Shown: positions 20,323-42,854 of the stretch, piece after piece
How positions within the stretch are numbered: position 1 is the stretch's first letter
How the letters are laid out: the number at the start of each line of letters is the position of its first letter
From: an uncultured Oscillospiraceae bacterium
Lineage (GTDB): Bacteria > Bacillota > Clostridia > Oscillospirales > Oscillospiraceae
Reading direction: 5' to 3'
Assembly: GCA_934597535.1 (NCBI GenBank)
Contig: CAKTRT010000006.1
Span: 1-48,540, forward strand
DNA: 48,540 nt
Program-made: the position numbers and the translations under genes
The notes under the pieces: model-generated
The model's database searches: none
Told to the model about the DNA's origin: nothing
The model's input: only the letters and a program-made list of their open reading frames with translations

Positions 20323-20352
20323 TTATTCGTGATTAAAGGAGACGATTCGGAT

Positions 20353-22653
20353 ATGACAGCACAGGATAAAACGTTAAAAGAGAATACCGCTTCGGCTCCT
20401 CTCCAAATCGTCGCGCCCGGCGCCTGCGTGGAGACCGGCGAGCATGCAAAGCTCGTGCTCGGCATGTACGACCACCTTGTCGAGACGATCCGTCAGTACA
20501 ACCCCAGCGCGGACTTTGCCCAGATCGACAAGGCCTTCCGCTATGCCGACACGCACCACAACGGCCAGCTCCGCAAAGACGGCTCGCCGTTTATCACGCA
20601 CCCGCTCGCCGTCGCGCAGATCATCGCAGAGGAGCTGCGGCTCGACAGCGAGTCCATCGAGGCCGCCCTCATGCACGACTGCATCGAGGATACCTCTGCC
20701 ACGTATGCCGAGATCGCCAAGGAATTCTCCCCTGCGGTCGCGGATCTGGTCGAGGGCGTCTCCAAGCTCACGCGCGTAAAGTATGCGAGCAAGGAAGAAG
20801 AGCAGATGGAAAACCTGCGCAAGATGCTCATGGCCATGGCCAAGGACATCCGCGTCATTCTCATCAAGCTGGCCGACCGCACGCACAACATGCGCACCAT
20901 GGAATACCAGACGGCGGAAAAGCAGCGGCAGAAGTCGCTTGAGACGATGGAGATCTACGCGCCCATCGCTCACCGTCTCGGTATGCAGAAGATCAAGTGG
21001 GAGCTGGAGGATCTTTCGCTCAAATACCTCGATCCCGTGGGCTACGAGGAGATCACCCGCTCGCTCGAGGCCAAGCACGAGGAATATGAATCCTTTATGG
21101 AGCGCGTGCAGGGACAGATCGAATCGCGGTTACAGGAACTGCACGTGCCCTACCGCAAGGTTTACGGGCGCATGAAGCACCCCTACAGCATCTACCGCAA
21201 GATGTACGCCCAGAGCAAGACGATGGACGAGGTGCTGGATCTTTTCGCCTTTCGTGTCATCGTCGATACCGTGGCCGACTGCTACAACGTGCTCGGCATC
21301 ATCCACGATCTCTATCGCCCCGTGCTCGGCCGGTTCAAGGACTATATCGGCACGCCCAAGCCGAACATGTACCAGTCGCTCCACACCACCGTCATCGGCG
21401 CCGACGGCATCCCCTTCGAGGTGCAGATCCGCACGCAGGAGATGCACGAGATCGCAGAATACGGCGTGGCGGCGCACTGGAAGTACAAGCAGGGCATCTC
21501 CGGCAGCGCCAACGAGCACAACTACGAATGGGTGCGCCGCCTTCTCGAAAACCAGGAGAACACCGACGCGGAGGAATTTGTCCACACGCTCAAGGTCGAT
21601 ATGTTTGCCGACGAGGTGTTCGTCTTTTCCCCGCGCGGCGACGTGACAAACCTTCCCGCCGGCGCGACGCCCATCGACTTTGCCTACTCCATCCACTCCG
21701 CCATCGGCAACCGTATGACGGGCGCAAAGGTCAACGGGCGCATCGCCCCGCTCGACTATCAGCTCAAAAACGGCGACGTGGTGGAGATCCTGACCTCCAA
21801 GAGCGCGCACGGCCCCAGCCGCGACTGGCTAAAGATCGCCCAGTCGAGCGAGGCGCGCAGCAAGATCCGCCAGTGGTTCAAGAAGGAGCGCCGCGAGGAG
21901 AATATCATCAACGGCCGCATGTCCTTTGAAGCCGAACTCAAGCACCTCGGCATCCCGATGAACGAGGTGCTTGGCACCGACATCGAGGCCGCGCTGCTCA
22001 AGAAGACCTCGTTCGGCTCGATGGATGAGATGTACGCCGCCATCGGCTACGGCGGTTTTTCCGCGCAGAAGGCCGTCAACCGCATCCACGACGAGATCGT
22101 CAAGCTGGAAAAGCAGCGCAAGGAGGAGCGCGCCGCCACCGTGCCGGTCGATAATTCCGGCGCGACGCGCCCGGCCATCCCCAAGCGCACGAAGAGCGAG
22201 CAGGGCATCGTGGTCGAGGGACTTTCGAACTGCCTTGTCAAATTCTCCAAGTGCTGCACACCCGTTCCCGGCGATGAGATCGTCGGCTTCATCACGCGCG
22301 GCTACGGCGTGTCCGTCCACCGCTGCGACTGCCCCAACGCCGCGCCCGAGCGCCGCAAGCCCGAGGAGCGCGGCCGCTGGATCAAGGTGAGCTGGGGCAC
22401 GGACGTGAAGGAATCCTACCAGACCACGCTCGACATCTACGCCAAGGACCGCCTCGACCTCGTGCTCGATGTCTCCGCCGCGCTCTCGTCCTCGCAGACG
22501 CGCGTGGCGTCCATCAACGCGACGACGACCGCCGACGGCTTTGCCGTCATCCACCTCAACATCTATGTTTCCGATGCCGAGCACCTTGGCGCAGTCATGC
22601 GCAGGCTGCACCAGATCAGCGGAGTGATGAAGGTGGATCGCCCTGCGGGCTAA
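20353..22653 (+). CDS. rel: Bifunctional (p)ppGpp synthetase/hydrolase
   Basis: A 766-residue long RelA/SpoT homologue. The HD hydrolase domain has ITHPLAVAQII and HDCIEDT near residue 108. The synthetase domain has YGRMKHPYSIYRKM and RFKDYIGTPKPNMYQSLHT near residue 327; the RxKD form is the one found in bifunctional enzymes, not the ExDD of E. coli RelA. A TGS domain (VFVFSPRGDVTNLP, near residue 420), a zinc-type CCTPVPGDEIVGF region and a C-terminal ACT domain complete the regulatory half. ATG 20353 has AAAGGAG upstream; an in-frame GTG at 20329 is less likely. A long repeat follows the stop immediately. Confidence 0.97.
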   Translation: MTAQDKTLKENTASAPLQIVAPGACVETGEHAKLVLGMYDHLVETIRQYNPSADFAQIDKAFRYADTHHNGQLRKDGSPFITHPLAVAQIIAEELRLDSESIEAALMHDCIEDTSATYAEIAKEFSPAVADLVEGVSKLTRVKYASKEEEQMENLRKMLMAMAKDIRVILIKLADRTHNMRTMEYQTAEKQRQKSLETMEIYAPIAHRLGMQKIKWELEDLSLKYLDPVGYEEITRSLEAKHEEYESFMERVQGQIESRLQELHVPYRKVYGRMKHPYSIYRKMYAQSKTMDEVLDLFAFRVIVDTVADCYNVLGIIHDLYRPVLGRFKDYIGTPKPNMYQSLHTTVIGADGIPFEVQIRTQEMHEIAEYGVAAHWKYKQGISGSANEHNYEWVRRLLENQENTDAEEFVHTLKVDMFADEVFVFSPRGDVTNLPAGATPIDFAYSIHSAIGNRMTGAKVNGRIAPLDYQLKNGDVVEILTSKSAHGPSRDWLKIAQSSEARSKIRQWFKKERREENIINGRMSFEAELKHLGIPMNEVLGTDIEAALLKKTSFGSMDEMYAAIGYGGFSAQKAVNRIHDEIVKLEKQRKEERAATVPVDNSGATRPAIPKRTKSEQGIVVEGLSNCLVKFSKCCTPVPGDEIVGFITRGYGVSVHRCDCPNAAPERRKPEERGRWIKVSWGTDVKESYQTTLDIYAKDRLDLVLDVSAALSSSQTRVASINATTTADGFAVIHLNIYVSDAEHLGAVMRRLHQISGVMKVDRPAG

Positions 22654-22655
22654 AT

Positions 22656-23330
22656 TCCGCGCATCGCGCGGAGAGAAATGCCGCCTGCGGGCGGCAGGAC
22701 CACACCCCCCATTTTCTTTCCCGAGAAAGAAAACGGGCGGTGTGACCGTCCAAAAGAAAGGCGTTTGATTGGCAGCCCCAAGCTCGAACAACCTTTATGC
22801 CTCCGGAATGCAACTGCCTGCGTGCGGCGGAGCCGCGTCAGCTTTGCAAGACGATTTGCCTCTGCTTCTACTACCCGCTGTTGCGCAGCCGTTGGCAGCT
22901 CTGCTGCCTTACGGATGCGGCACACCCCTTGCGGGTGCCGCTCTGCTGATCTTGCGCAAGTGCAGCCTAATCGCCGTCTACCGATAATACGATATCGCGG
23001 CGAGCGTCAGCAATGCCGCCTTGGCAGGCAAACACAAGATTGCACCAATCCGAAGTAGACGGAGATTGCTAAAGGGTAACGAATCGCAGGCAAAGCGGCA
23101 GCGAAGATAGAAGCACACCAAGTCGTTTAGATTCATCACTTGGCAGGCACCCGATTCCGCAGGCTGAGCACTTCTTCAAGCTACAAACTCACAATGTCGG
23201 GGGTCGAGGGGAACTCCCCTCGTCCTTCTCTGGGGGATACAAAGGGGGTATTCTCTTCGAGAAGAGAATACCCCCTTTGACCCGCGCTCCCCACGGCAGT
23301 GGGGACCAAAACGCCGCCCCTTTGGGGCAT
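22656..23330 (+). repeat. Structured intergenic repeat family 1, copy 1 (rel-dtd)
   Basis: This fills nearly all of a 692-bp gap between rel and dtd. It matches 41574-42230 in inverted orientation over its length. Hairpins in order: 22656-22672; 22679-22696; 22708-22737 (CCCATTTTCTTTC arm with a conserved A-C mismatch); 22824-22836; GGCAGC-TCT-GCTGCC at 22894-22908; GCGGCAC/GTGCCGC at 22917-22941; CGAGGGG-AACT-CCCCTCG at 23205-23222; a 17-bp stem with CGAG loop at 23241-23278; 23288-23305; 23316-23328. The last hairpin runs into the dtd ribosome site. No convincing gene lies inside. Confidence 0.85.
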
Positions 23331-23345
23331 AGAAAGGAATCTATC

Positions 23346-23810
23346 ATGCGAGCAGTATTGACTAAGGTTAAACACGCCTCCGTTACGATCGACGGAGAGC
23401 TCAAGGGCAAGATCGGCAGGGGCTTTTTGATCCTGCTGGGCGTTGCGCCTGACGACACGGAAGAAAAATGCCGCAAAATGGCAGACAAGCTCTGCTCGCT
23501 GCGCATTTTTGACGATGAAAATGACAAGATCAACCTCTCGCTCGACGACGTCGGCGGGGAATTGCTCATCATCTCGCAGTTCACGCTCTACGGCAACTGC
23601 CGCAAGGGCCGCCGCCCCGAATTTTTAAGCGCCGCGCGGCCGGAGATCGCTATCCCGATGTACGAAAAATTTGTGGACATCTGCCGCGAGAAGGGCTACC
23701 ATGTAGAGACCGGTGAGTTCGGCGCCTACATGGAGGTCGAATCGCTCAACGACGGGCCGTTTACGCTGATCGTCGATTCCGCCGATCTGGACGCGCCCAA
23801 AAAACAGTGA
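23346..23810 (+). CDS. dtd: D-aminoacyl-tRNA deacylase
   Basis: A 154-residue DTD of normal length. It removes D-amino acids (and glycine) wrongly attached to tRNA. The two active-site motifs are [22 protein letters not shown] (SQFTL with catalytic Thr region) and the C-terminal [11 protein letters not shown], which carries the cross-subunit Gly-cisPro. ATG 23346 has AAAGGAA upstream; the frame extends further back only through the repeat and is not used. It is classically the neighbour of rel, here pushed away by the 675-bp repeat. Confidence 0.96.
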
Positions 23811-40545: not shown

Positions 40546-41514
40546 ATGATCTCTCACGGCAAGGACATCAAGATTTTCACCGGCAACGCAAACCCCAAAC
40601 TGGCAGCGGACATCTGCAAGATCATCGGCACCAAGCTCGGCGAGAGCGAGGTCAAGAGCTTCGCAGACGGCGAGGCCTCCGTCTCCCTGTACGAGACCGT
40701 GCGCGGCAGCGACGTGTTCCTCGTTCAGTCCACCTGCAAGCCCGTCAACGACAGTCTGATGGAGCTTCTGATCATGGTCGATGCCTGCCGCCGCGCTTCC
40801 GCCGGCCGCATCACCGCCGTCATGCCCTACTTCGGCTACGCCCGTCAGGACCGCAAGGCCAAGAGCCGCGACCCCATCTCCGCCAAGCTCGTGGCCAACA
40901 TGCTCGTCGCCGCAGGCGTTGACCGCGTGCTGACGATGGACCTGCACGCCAACCAGATCCAGGGCTTCTTTGATATTCCCGTGGACAACCTCTTTGGCAA
41001 CCCCATCTTTGTCGATTACTATGCCAAGAAGTTCGGCTCTGCTTGCGAGGATATGGTCGTCGTCTCCCCCGACGTCGGCTCCGTCGCCCGCGCCCGCACC
41101 TTCGCTCAGAAGCTGCACATGAATCTCGCCATCGTCGATAAGCGCCGCCAGAAGGCCAACCAGTGCGAGGTCATGAACGTCATCGGCGACGTTGAGGGCA
41201 AGGAGTGCATCCTCTTCGACGACATGGTCGACACCGCCGGTTCCCTCTGCAACGCGGCCAAGGCCATCGTTGAGGTCGGCGGCGCGAAGAAGGTCTACGC
41301 CTGCGCGTCCCACGGCGTTCTCTCCGGCCCCGCGCTCGAGCGCCTGGCCAACAGCAACATCGAGGAGCTCGCTCTGCTCGATACCATCCCCGCGCCTACC
41401 AATGAAGAGGAGCTCAAAAAGTCCCGCATCAAGTATCTGACCGTTGCGCCGATGTTCGCCGAGGCGATCGAGCGCACGTATCAGGAGATTTCGATTGCAA
41501 AGCTGTTTAACTAA
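40546..41514 (+). CDS. prs: Ribose-phosphate pyrophosphokinase
   Basis: A 322-residue class I PRPP synthetase. It has IFTGNANPKLAADICKIIG, FADGEASVSLYETVRGSDVFLVQSTCKPVND, MPYFGYARQDRKAKSRDPISAKLVANML, the metal motif LTMDLHANQIQGFFDIPVDNLF, and the PRPP loop CILFDDMVDTAGSLCNAA. It makes PRPP for nucleotide, histidine and NAD synthesis. It follows glmU by 38 bp with GAGGAG before the ATG. In Bacillus the next genes are ctc and spoVC (pth); here ctc is missing and a long repeat stands before pth. Confidence 0.98.
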   Translation: MISHGKDIKIFTGNANPKLAADICKIIGTKLGESEVKSFADGEASVSLYETVRGSDVFLVQSTCKPVNDSLMELLIMVDACRRASAGRITAVMPYFGYARQDRKAKSRDPISAKLVANMLVAAGVDRVLTMDLHANQIQGFFDIPVDNLFGNPIFVDYYAKKFGSACEDMVVVSPDVGSVARARTFAQKLHMNLAIVDKRRQKANQCEVMNVIGDVEGKECILFDDMVDTAGSLCNAAKAIVEVGGAKKVYACASHGVLSGPALERLANSNIEELALLDTIPAPTNEEELKKSRIKYLTVAPMFAEAIERTYQEISIAKLFN

Positions 41515-41573: not shown

Positions 41574-42230
41574 ATGCCGCGCGTTGCGCGGCGGGAAAAC
41601 TCCCGCACCGTGCGGAAGTGCGCCAAAAGGGGGTATTCTCTTCTCGAAGAGAATACCCCCTTTGGAACCCCAAAAGAAATGCAAGGGGTCTTCCCCCTCG
41701 ACCCCGCACATTGGCAGTTTAGGGCTTGAAGGACTGCACGCGCTGCGCAATGTAAGTGCGGTGTACATGGCTTCGCCATGAATCCCTGCGAATCGTTACC
41801 GATCGCAACCGCGCCTTACTATCGCGAGGCGCGAGCGACGTTGCCTCGGCGGCAGACTGCGTGCGAAATAGCGGCATTGCTGCGCTTGCCGCATTGCTGG
41901 GTACTCTGGTAGACAGAAATTAGTCTGCACTTCTACAAGATCAGCAGAGCGGCACCCGCAAGGGGTGTACCGCATCCGTAAGGCGGCAAAGCCGCCAACG
42001 GCTGCGCAACAGCGGATAGTAGAAGCAAATCAAATCGTGTAGCAGGAATCAACGCGGCTCCGCCGCGCGCAGGCATTTCCATTCCGGAGGCAAAAGTCTT
42101 ATTCAAACCTGAAGCTGCCAAGCTAACGCCTTTCTTTTGGACGGTCACCGCCCGTTTTCTTTCCACGGAAAGAAAATGGGGGTCGCATCACGCGGCACAT
42201 GTGCCGCATCTCCCTTCGCACCTGTGCGAA
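41574..42230 (-). repeat. Structured intergenic repeat family 1, copy 2 (prs-pth), inverted
   Basis: Second copy of the 22656-23330 element, reading on the minus strand, in a 761-bp gap. Counterpart hairpins: GCCGCGC-GTT-GCGCGGC at 41576-41592; 41603-41615; the 17-bp stem at 41626-41663; 41682-41700; GCGGTAC/GTGCCGC type around 41950-41975; GGCGGC-AAA-GCCGCC at 41982-41996; GCGGCTCCGCCGC near 42053; the TTTTCTTTCC stem at 42151-42180; GCGGCAC-AT-GTGCCGC at 42192-42207; TTCGCAC-CT-GTGCGAA at 42215-42230. 41515-41573 shows nothing I can name. A further hairpin, GCGCCC-TCAC-GGGCGC (42240-42255), precedes the pth ribosome site. Confidence 0.85.
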
Positions 42231-42275: not shown

Positions 42276-42854
42276 ATGATTTTCAAAAAATCCGGCTCGC
42301 CGGAATGGCTGCTCGTCTGCCTCGGCAATTACGGCAAACAGTATGAAAACACCCGCCACAACATCGGCTTCATGGCCGCGGAGCGGTTGATCGACAAGCG
42401 CGATCTGCGCTGCAACCGGCTGCGCTTCCACGCGCTGACGGAGGTCATCGACTTTGGCGGGGCGAACGTGCTTCTGATGATGCCGCAGACCTACATGAAC
42501 CTCTCCGGGGAAGCTGTGGGCGAGGCGGCGCGGTTCTACAAAATTCCGCCCGAGCACGTGATCGTCATCTCCGACGACGTATCACTGCCGCTGGGCAAGA
42601 TCCGCGTGCGCGGCAGCGGCAGCGCGGGCGGGCACAACGGGCTGAAGAACATCATCGCCCATCTCGGCACAGACGCCTTCCCGCGCGTCAAGGTCGGCGT
42701 GGGGGCGCCGGAGCACGATCTTGTCGATTGGGTCATCGGGCCGTTCACGGCGCAGGAGCGCAAGGTGGTGGACGAGGCGCTCGACCGTGCGCTCGGCGCG
42801 GCGGAGTGCATTATCACAAGCGGCGTGAACGCTGCGCAGAACAAATTCAACTGA
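42276..42854 (+). CDS. pth: Peptidyl-tRNA hydrolase
   Basis: A 192-residue Pth. It has LLVCLGNYGKQYENTRHNIGFMAAERL (catalytic His in TRHNIGF, near residue 31), LLMMPQTYMNLSGEAVG, DDVSLPLGKIRVRGSGSAGGHNGLKNI and FPRVKVGVGAP. It frees tRNA from dropped peptidyl-tRNA. ATG 42276 has GTGAGG about 9 bp upstream; the longer frame to 42201 runs into the repeat and is not used. A terminator follows, so it is separated from mfd. Confidence 0.96.
   Translation: MIFKKSGSPEWLLVCLGNYGKQYENTRHNIGFMAAERLIDKRDLRCNRLRFHALTEVIDFGGANVLLMMPQTYMNLSGEAVGEAARFYKIPPEHVIVISDDVSLPLGKIRVRGSGSAGGHNGLKNIIAHLGTDAFPRVKVGVGAPEHDLVDWVIGPFTAQERKVVDEALDRALGAAECIITSGVNAAQNKFN

What the first reader, a model, noticed from the sequence alone, without database searches (positions are those of the whole stretch)
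22656..23330. A long structured repeat family whose hairpin arms covary between two copies
Seen: 22656-23330 and the inverse of 41574-42230 align over about 660 bp. The core is highly conserved, but several hairpins keep pairing while arm sequences change: TCCGCGC/GCGCGGA versus TTCGCAC/GTGCGAA; TGCCGCC/GGCGGCA versus GCGGCAC/GTGCCGC; GGCAGC/GCTGCC versus GGCGGC/GCCGCC; CCCCAC/GTGGGG versus CCGCA/TGCGG; GCCCC/GGGGC versus GCCGCGC/GCGCGGC. CGAGGGG/CCCCTCG becomes a wobble pair form. A 17-bp stem with a 4-nt loop is invariant. Inference: selection acts on folded RNA or single-stranded DNA, not on protein. This may be an undescribed large noncoding RNA or a non-autonomous mobile element.
Basis: partly seen in the sequence, partly recalled or inferred. 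Interest (0 to 1): 0.85.

Follow-up and report, generated by a model that had tools for sequence, protein, structure and literature searches.

The report
Hairpin-ended mosaic mobile repeat family
The two look-alike stretches belong to a family of dozens of mosaic, hairpin-ended repeats that sit just behind genes in one group of gut bacteria, look more like a small mobile DNA element than a large RNA, and in their longer forms carry a pair of tiny genes.

Summary
In detail: 22656-23330 (+) and 41574-42230 (-) are two copies of one noncoding element (73% identity over ~600 columns), and several short hairpins stay paired while their letters differ. The closest genome found is Oscillibacter sp. 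ER4 (~90% DNA identity), whose draft holds dozens of copies. A copy is two arms of different type in inverted orientation, each ending in a ~40-bp palindrome with small hairpins outside. Covariation is strong but local: 72 and 81 of 82 ends are Watson-Crick at the two variable palindrome positions (shuffle means 26 and 38). One large folded RNA is not supported: arms of one copy match each other hardly better than arms of different copies, no long-range pair covaries, and G-U and A-C mismatches are equal (7 v 9). Mobility is supported by a gene-bearing copy where a relative has 86 bp, one slot with three forms in three genomes, and restriction to a few genomes. Nine gene-bearing loci read all hold two divergent tiny genes: a DNA-binding protein and a small protein (a ~65-aa family without Pfam entry in seven). 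A transposase gene lies inside one copy, but as an insertion found elsewhere on its own. Best reading: a MITE/BOX-like mosaic element moved by an unknown enzyme.

The parts
22656..23330 (+). copy 1, whole element including outer hairpins, between rel (20329-22653) and dtd (from 23346)
   Evidence: same locus in ER4
22656..22672 (+). outer hairpin TCCGCGC/GCGCGGA
22679..22696 (+). outer hairpin TGCCGCC/GGCGGCA
22701..22744 (+). left terminal palindrome, type A (TTTTCTTTC..GAAAGAAAA)
22745..23030 (+). alpha arm (inner limit approximate)
22879..22937 (+). 57-bp two-hairpin insert (placement ambiguous by 2 bp), absent from the ER4 copy at this locus
23031..23199 (-). second arm, labelled gamma by motif, inverted relative to the first (inner limit approximate)
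23202..23225 (+). hairpin CGAGGGG/CCCCTCG with its flanks
23240..23279 (.). right terminal palindrome, type B (GGGGNNATTCTCT..AGAGAATNNCCCC)
23288..23305 (+). outer hairpin TCCCCAC/GTGGGGA
23316..23328 (+). outer hairpin GCCCC/GGGGC
   Evidence: read from the sequence
41574..42230 (-). copy 2, whole element, between prs (40546-41514) and pth (family match within 42276-42854)
41626..41664 (.). terminal palindrome, type B, of copy 2
41953..42009 (-). 57-bp insert in copy 2
42146..42182 (-). terminal palindrome, type A, of copy 2
42192..42230 (-). outer hairpins GCGGCAC/GTGCCGC and TTCGCAC/GTGCGAA of copy 2
   Evidence: read from the sequence
41576..41615 (-). outer hairpins CCGCA/TGCGG and GCCGCGC/GCGCGGC of copy 2
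   Evidence: read from the sequence

Best explanation
These are two copies of a lineage-specific, non-autonomous mobile repeat of the MITE/BOX kind. The unit is two homologous arms, as a rule of different type (alpha, beta, gamma), in inverted orientation, each closed by a ~40-bp palindrome that looks like a bidirectional terminator, usually with one or more small hairpins beyond it. Copies sit about 50-60 nt behind stop codons, where a terminator-like end does least harm. Longer copies hold two tiny divergent genes in the middle, a small XRE or ribbon-helix-helix DNA-binding protein and a small (mostly ~65-aa, two-helix) protein, each reading outward, so that each arm would be a 3' untranslated region closed by the palindrome. 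Inferred: short copies are deletion forms; solo palindromes arise by recombination between the two palindromic ends, as solo LTRs do; arms, inserts and hairpins are exchanged between copies by recombination; palindromes stay perfect through that exchange, template switching and/or a need to terminate on both strands; an enzyme encoded elsewhere moves the element. Shown here: architecture, copy number, location, differences between relatives, cargo layout, locality of covariation. Not shown: the mobilising enzyme, target duplication, transcription, termination.
For: 77 exact type-B palindromes in ER4 (G001), 11 in G011, 1 in G012, 0 in G017, 0 for the reversed-pattern control. 51 pieces of 400 bp or more among the ER4 stretches fetched. 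The repeat profile, built from hits on both strands, matches both strands of the same copies with near-equal score. G011 has a 0.94-kb gene-bearing copy where G012 has 86 bp between the same flanks; the next G011 copy corresponds to a solo palindrome in G012 and to a two-arm copy without genes in ER4, there cut by the contig end. In ER4, 37 copies of 400 bp or more with both flanking genes called: 16 convergent, 19 co-directional, 2 divergent, against 20/69/19 of 108 element-free gaps; convergent p 0.004, divergent p 0.10; median 58 nt from stop codon to palindrome, 44 of 51 within 25-100 nt. Nine distinct gene-bearing loci read, nine with a divergent pair. Restriction: 4 of 18 genomes of the genus, 3 of 300 of the family, no plasmid record. 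Locality of covariation.
Against: No transposase belonging to the element was found, and no parent transposon with matching ends. One copy (L307 2267-4770) does contain a DDE transposase in two frames (PF05598 and PF01609) between the two cargo genes; pieces of it occur in G012 and G011 without element palindromes nearby, so I read it as an independent insertion sequence. But it is found in all 3 genomes with the type-B palindrome (G001, G011, G012) and in 0 of 3 others searched (G010, G017, G018), and one G012 piece (L317) lies beside an arm-like match, so a role in trans is not excluded. No target-site duplication could be read; the one empty counterpart lies in a diverged intergenic region. 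The 8 strain pairs show a copy in both strains, but the loci were fetched because they hold a copy, so empty sites could not show. Copy 1 is ~99% identical in two species while the genes around are ~91%; read here as a recombination tract since near-identity runs into both genes (22612-23476, 6 substitutions). As terminator the end is weak on sequence alone: about three T after the stem.
Confidence: 0.7

Rival explanations
1. Each copy encodes a large structured noncoding or cis-regulatory RNA and selection acts on its overall fold.
For: Strong predicted folding; z -3.0 remains for the interior of copy 1 without the ends; conserved blocks in the arms; in the 57-bp insert 6 copies have G-T and 1 has A-C at one pair on one strand.
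Against: Arm identity within a copy 0.704 (n=23) v 0.691 between copies (n=166). 0 of 15 and 0 of 8 long-range pairs covary in 19 full-length copies, against 7 of 82 and 10 of 102 local pairs. Terminal palindrome: G-U 7, A-C 9, p 0.80. No Rfam match at threshold in the element; sub-threshold hits are mostly microRNA-type hairpin models. The G-T cells of the insert are in related copies.
Confidence: 0.08
2. A host-functional, non-mobile set of 3'-end modules (bidirectional terminators, mRNA 3'-end protectors or protein-binding sites) spread by duplication and gene conversion.
For: Location a median 58 nt behind stop codons and convergent excess; slots kept between species; equal G-U and A-C counts, as expected if both strands must pair.
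Against: Found in few genomes, while relatives have the same gene neighbours without it; copies carry passenger genes; convergent enrichment of pneumococcal repeats was taken as a sign of parasitic elements (PMC3049150, passages).
Confidence: 0.14
3. The covariation is purely mutational: template switching and copying between repeats create and restore palindromes, without selection on pairing.
For: Inner sequence CTCTCACGTGAGAG, a palindrome without loop, is the commonest (23 of 82 ends); no wobble preference; element content including hairpins differs as a whole between some strains; the mechanism is described in PMC8794818 (abstract and opening text seen).
Against: Not traced here on dated alleles; explains hairpin upkeep, not copy number or cargo, so it complements the mobile-element reading.
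Confidence: 0.08

Closest known systems
BOX, RUP and SPRITE repeats of Streptococcus pneumoniae (PMC3049150; abstract and passages seen)
   Same: Lineage-restricted, strongly folded, enriched between convergent genes, slow to move, some large BOX forms with open reading frames, SPRITE terminator-like (the last also in passages of PMC10969869). BOX modularity is recalled.
   Different: No sequence relation was tested. Here two arms face each other, each end is a covarying palindrome, and long copies carry a recurrent tiny gene pair.
MITEs in general (PMC10969869, passages seen)
   Same: Multicopy, inverted ends, no transposase of their own, intergenic.
   Different: Very long imperfect inverted arms and palindromic ends; no parent transposon or target duplication found; gene-bearing versions.
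REP/BIME/REPIN with RAYT (Y1) transposases (PMC2817692, PMC3733652, PMC3116915: search listings only)
   Same: Palindromic units in mosaics.
   Different: No Y1 transposase (PF01797) in 5 genomes searched; units larger; GTAG/CGTC tags not looked for.
Correia elements and ERIC (named in a passage of PMC3049150, otherwise recalled)
   Same: Intergenic repeats, Correia with inverted ends.
   Different: Size, mosaic of arms, cargo; sequence relation not tested.

Membership tests
MITE (non-autonomous DNA transposon) | multicopy with inverted ends and no transposase of its own | tested here: met
   the transposase inside L307 is read as an independent insertion
MITE (non-autonomous DNA transposon) | insertion differences between relatives | tested here: met
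   one case, G011 v G012; strain pairs were blind to empty sites
MITE (non-autonomous DNA transposon) | target-site duplication | tested here: inconclusive
   no clean empty site of a close strain at hand
MITE (non-autonomous DNA transposon) | a full transposon with matching ends supplies the transposase | tested here: inconclusive
   Y1 absent; one DDE transposase nested in a copy without proof of matching ends; other families not searched
REP/REPIN with RAYT | RAYT (Y1) transposase in the genome | tested here: not met
   0 of 5 genomes, control rings in 5 of 14; ER4 is a draft assembly, completeness of the others not told
large structured ncRNA | covariation supporting a fold across the molecule | tested here: not met
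large structured ncRNA | discrete transcript | not testable with these tools
   no RNA data
known Rfam family | score above gathering threshold | tested here: not met
   sub-threshold Clostridiales-2 hit in copy 1 (24.4 of 58.6 bits), not listed for copy 2 or the L201 end

The most novel reading that the evidence does not exclude
A new class of recombinase-less selfish cassette: a small DNA-binding protein and a small two-helix protein, divergently transcribed between mirror-image arms that serve as 3' UTR, terminator and recombination end, held at fixed slots behind genes where whole cassettes, gene-less arms or solo palindromes replace one another between strains and species.
Probability: 0.18. 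Interest if true: 0.75.

Novelty: new variant of a known kind. Interest (0 to 1): 0.5.

Why it matters
It is a clear case where strong covariation does not point to a large functional RNA, a caution for RNA discovery in genomes rich in palindromic repeats. The family also offers an orderly system (two-arm, gene-bearing and solo forms at one slot in three genomes) to ask how small elements without their own transposase spread and recombine. The ~65-aa cargo protein has over a thousand relatives in public data and no Pfam family.

Tried and rejected
Large folded RNA: tested by arm-to-arm identity, full-length consensus folding and a wobble count, and rejected. Known RNA family: rejected. RAYT-driven REP: rejected for five genomes. 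Phage or plasmid element: no plasmid match; an exact 20-mer is absent from viral contigs and the five viral-contig stretches with a 17-mer do not hold the element by blastn; 16 'Bacteriophage sp.' records match, seven were fetched, and six of these match ER4 at 94-99% over 1-6 kb (L002 only over 388 bp at 94%), so I read them as bacterial DNA. Selection as cause of the ~99% identity of copy 1 between species: rejected, the block runs into both genes. Whole inversion of the element between strains: tested at two loci; 60 v 59% identity in one, 54 v 78% reversed in the other, so not a simple flip. The nested transposase as the element's own: not favoured, see evidence against. The predicted structure of the ~65-aa protein is two helices, mean pLDDT 81; no fold search was run, since a two-helix hairpin matches too much.

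Weak points: ER4 is a draft and L001-L007 are faecal metagenome scaffolds; short-read assembly can take a wrong path through repeats, so the strongest strain differences (L007/L189 second locus, L003/L202) need long reads. Gene contexts rest on a simple codon-usage gene caller of my own. The strain pairs and ER4 stretches were chosen because they hold a copy. One search scored two candidates per genome and may miss diverged copies. The list of gene-bearing loci is not exhaustive. In the covariation count the other stem positions were fixed by the search pattern and say nothing.

Full report
Observation. The two stretches exist as described and align at 73.4% over 597 columns. They lie between rel and dtd and between prs and pth. 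Chance is excluded: a shared 18-mer and the terminal palindrome have 0.03 and 0.00 expected matches in shuffles of the window.

Host and copies. No whole genome is held for the window. ER4 (handle G001, reached through locus L074) is ~90% identical to the window along rel-dtd and prs. In ER4, copy 1 as query gives 98 matching pieces, a query holding copy 2 and its neighbouring genes 84, and the type-B palindrome occurs 77 times, with none for the reversed control. Of the genus 4 of 18 genomes match, of the family 3 of 300 (two candidates scored per genome); the type-A end pattern occurs in 2 of 400. Plasmids: none. Phage records: 16; of seven fetched, six match ER4 at 94-99% over 1-6 kb and the seventh over 388 bp, so they look bacterial.

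Anatomy. A profile started from one ER4 copy and rebuilt from 74 long hits on both strands matches both strands of the same copies about equally: the element has long inverted arms. Of 89 distinct arms, 40 were sorted by motif as beta, 21 alpha, 20 gamma and 8 other. Of 23 copies with both arms, 12 are alpha-beta, 6 beta-gamma, 2 alpha-gamma (copy 1 and its ER4 counterpart) and 3 include an unsorted arm; none joins two arms of one named type. Outside the palindrome a perfect stem of six or more lies within 60 nt in 94 of 98 ends (14 type A, 84 type B), against 5.6% of shuffles. A 57-bp two-hairpin insert sits at one exact site in 15 of 17 distinct copies found by pattern and at another site in 2; at rel-dtd it is present in the window and L001 and absent from ER4, and it differs between strains at two more loci.

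Covariation. Over 82 unique type-B ends the two variable stem positions are Watson-Crick in 72 and 81, against shuffle means of 26.1 and 38.2 and maxima of 40 and 53; the next outer position gives 77 against 41.0 (maximum 57). The other stem positions were fixed by the search pattern. Mismatches are G-U 7 and A-C 9 on the strand read from the flanking gene (p 0.80). These shuffles do not account for descent. Consensus folding of 40 beta and of 41 alpha plus gamma arms finds little beyond the terminal palindrome and, in beta, one more hairpin. In 19 full-length copies 0 of 15 and, on the other strand, 0 of 8 long-range pairs show two Watson-Crick types, against 7 of 82 and 10 of 102 local pairs. 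Arms within a copy are 70.4% identical (n=23), arms of different copies with the same type pair 69.1% (n=166); the palindrome's variable letters agree between the two ends of a copy in 5 of 18, 31% between copies. Leaning towards RNA: the interior of copy 1 folds at z -3.0, and the insert hairpin has 6 G-T and 1 A-C, in related copies.

Place in the genome. Of 51 ER4 pieces of at least 400 bp, 37 have both flanking genes called: 16 convergent, 19 co-directional, 2 divergent; of 108 element-free gaps 20, 69 and 19 (convergent p 0.004, divergent p 0.10). The palindrome is a median 58 nt behind the stop codon, 44 of 51 within 25-100 nt.

Change between relatives. For eight same-locus pairs inside the ER4 species, element v flank identity is 98.5/98.9, 85.6/96.1, 96.1/97.1, 82.6/94.2, 99.8/97.6, 58.1/96.5, 93.1/99.4 and 52.2/94.8: five differ clearly more than their flanks, two about as much, one less. 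The slot stays, the content often changes; assembly error through repeats is a real alternative for the extreme cases, and empty sites could not show because the loci were chosen for holding a copy. Copy 1 of the window is ~99% identical to the ER4-species copies while the genes are ~91%, but the near-identical block runs from 22612 to 23476 with 6 substitutions to L001, into both genes, so I read it as a recombination tract. G011 v G012: one gene-bearing copy has 86 bp in its place; another corresponds to a solo palindrome in G012 and to a two-arm copy in ER4.

Cargo. Nine distinct gene-bearing loci were read (ten sequences; L004 and L181 are one locus in two strains): L004/L181, L007, L003, L247, L276, L288, L307 (also held as L285) and two in L244. 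All nine hold a divergent pair. The DNA-binding partner passes a Pfam cut-off in seven (HTH_26, HTH_3 or Arc), is a weak CopG-type match in L003 (below cut-off) and an Arc-like repressor only in PHROGs for L276 (E 5e-4; no Pfam). The other partner belongs to the ~65-aa family in seven (distantly in L247 and L003, 24 and 18% identity); in the two L244 copies it is a different small frame. The ~65-aa family has no Pfam match and nothing in NCBIfam or PHROGs better than E 0.05, 1047 relatives at E 1e-3 or better with a five-sequence profile, and is predicted as two helices. In L307 a DDE transposase in two frames (PF05598, PF01609) lies between the pair; its pieces recur in G012 and once in G011 without palindromes nearby, and homology ends near 2810 and 4373 of L307, inside the element, so I read it as a nested insertion sequence. 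It occurs in G001, G011 and G012 and not in G010, G017 or G018, and L317 has an arm-like match beside it, so a part in moving the element remains possible.

Known kinds. Nearest are BOX, RUP and SPRITE of pneumococcus (PMC3049150, abstract and passages). MITE is the best general label (PMC10969869, passages), but the parent transposon and target duplication are missing. REP with RAYT is not met. Searches for a report of this family showed none in the titles listed; open-licence papers only, and capped lists.

Verdict. Real, partly as first read: a mosaic, hairpin-ended mobile repeat family with a recurrent tiny gene pair; a large RNA is not supported.

Noticed in passing
22612-23476: Near-identical block (6 substitutions in 865 bp) between the window and L001 although the genes around are ~91% identical; it includes the ends of rel and dtd: a likely recombination tract between species.
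   Followed up: yes
L307 2810-4373: DDE transposase in two frames nested between the XRE gene and the ~65-aa gene of one element; relatives in G011 (1 match) and G012 (8 pieces), none in G010, G017, G018.
   Followed up: partly
L001-L007: GenBank 'Bacteriophage sp.' scaffolds from human faeces; six of the seven match Oscillibacter sp. ER4 at 94-99% over 1-6 kb, so probably bacterial DNA in a virus-labelled set.
   Followed up: partly
L252 and L253, between rel and dtd: G012 and G011 have another gene between rel and dtd (looks like glucose-6-phosphate isomerase; name recalled, not searched), where ER4 and the window have the element.
   Followed up: no
L163 about 1500-1800, L285 1818-1889, L288 1278-1341, L237 4792-4855: A further arm type with GGGGCGTTTCGATYTCGCCCC and CGACCAAAAGRGAGGGG-like blocks in ER4, with a similar layout in G017.
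   Followed up: partly
2805-2855: Hairpin CCCTGCGCCGCGCAGGG beside an AAAGGGACCGC..GCGGTCCCTTT stem behind a gene: layout of an element end, other sequence.
   Followed up: no
L286 (G018) about 1500-1640, - strand: A 36% identical relative of the ~65-aa protein behind a gene, next to a GC-rich hairpin, without element arms.
   Followed up: partly
1-65: tRNA gene cut by the window's edge.
   Followed up: no
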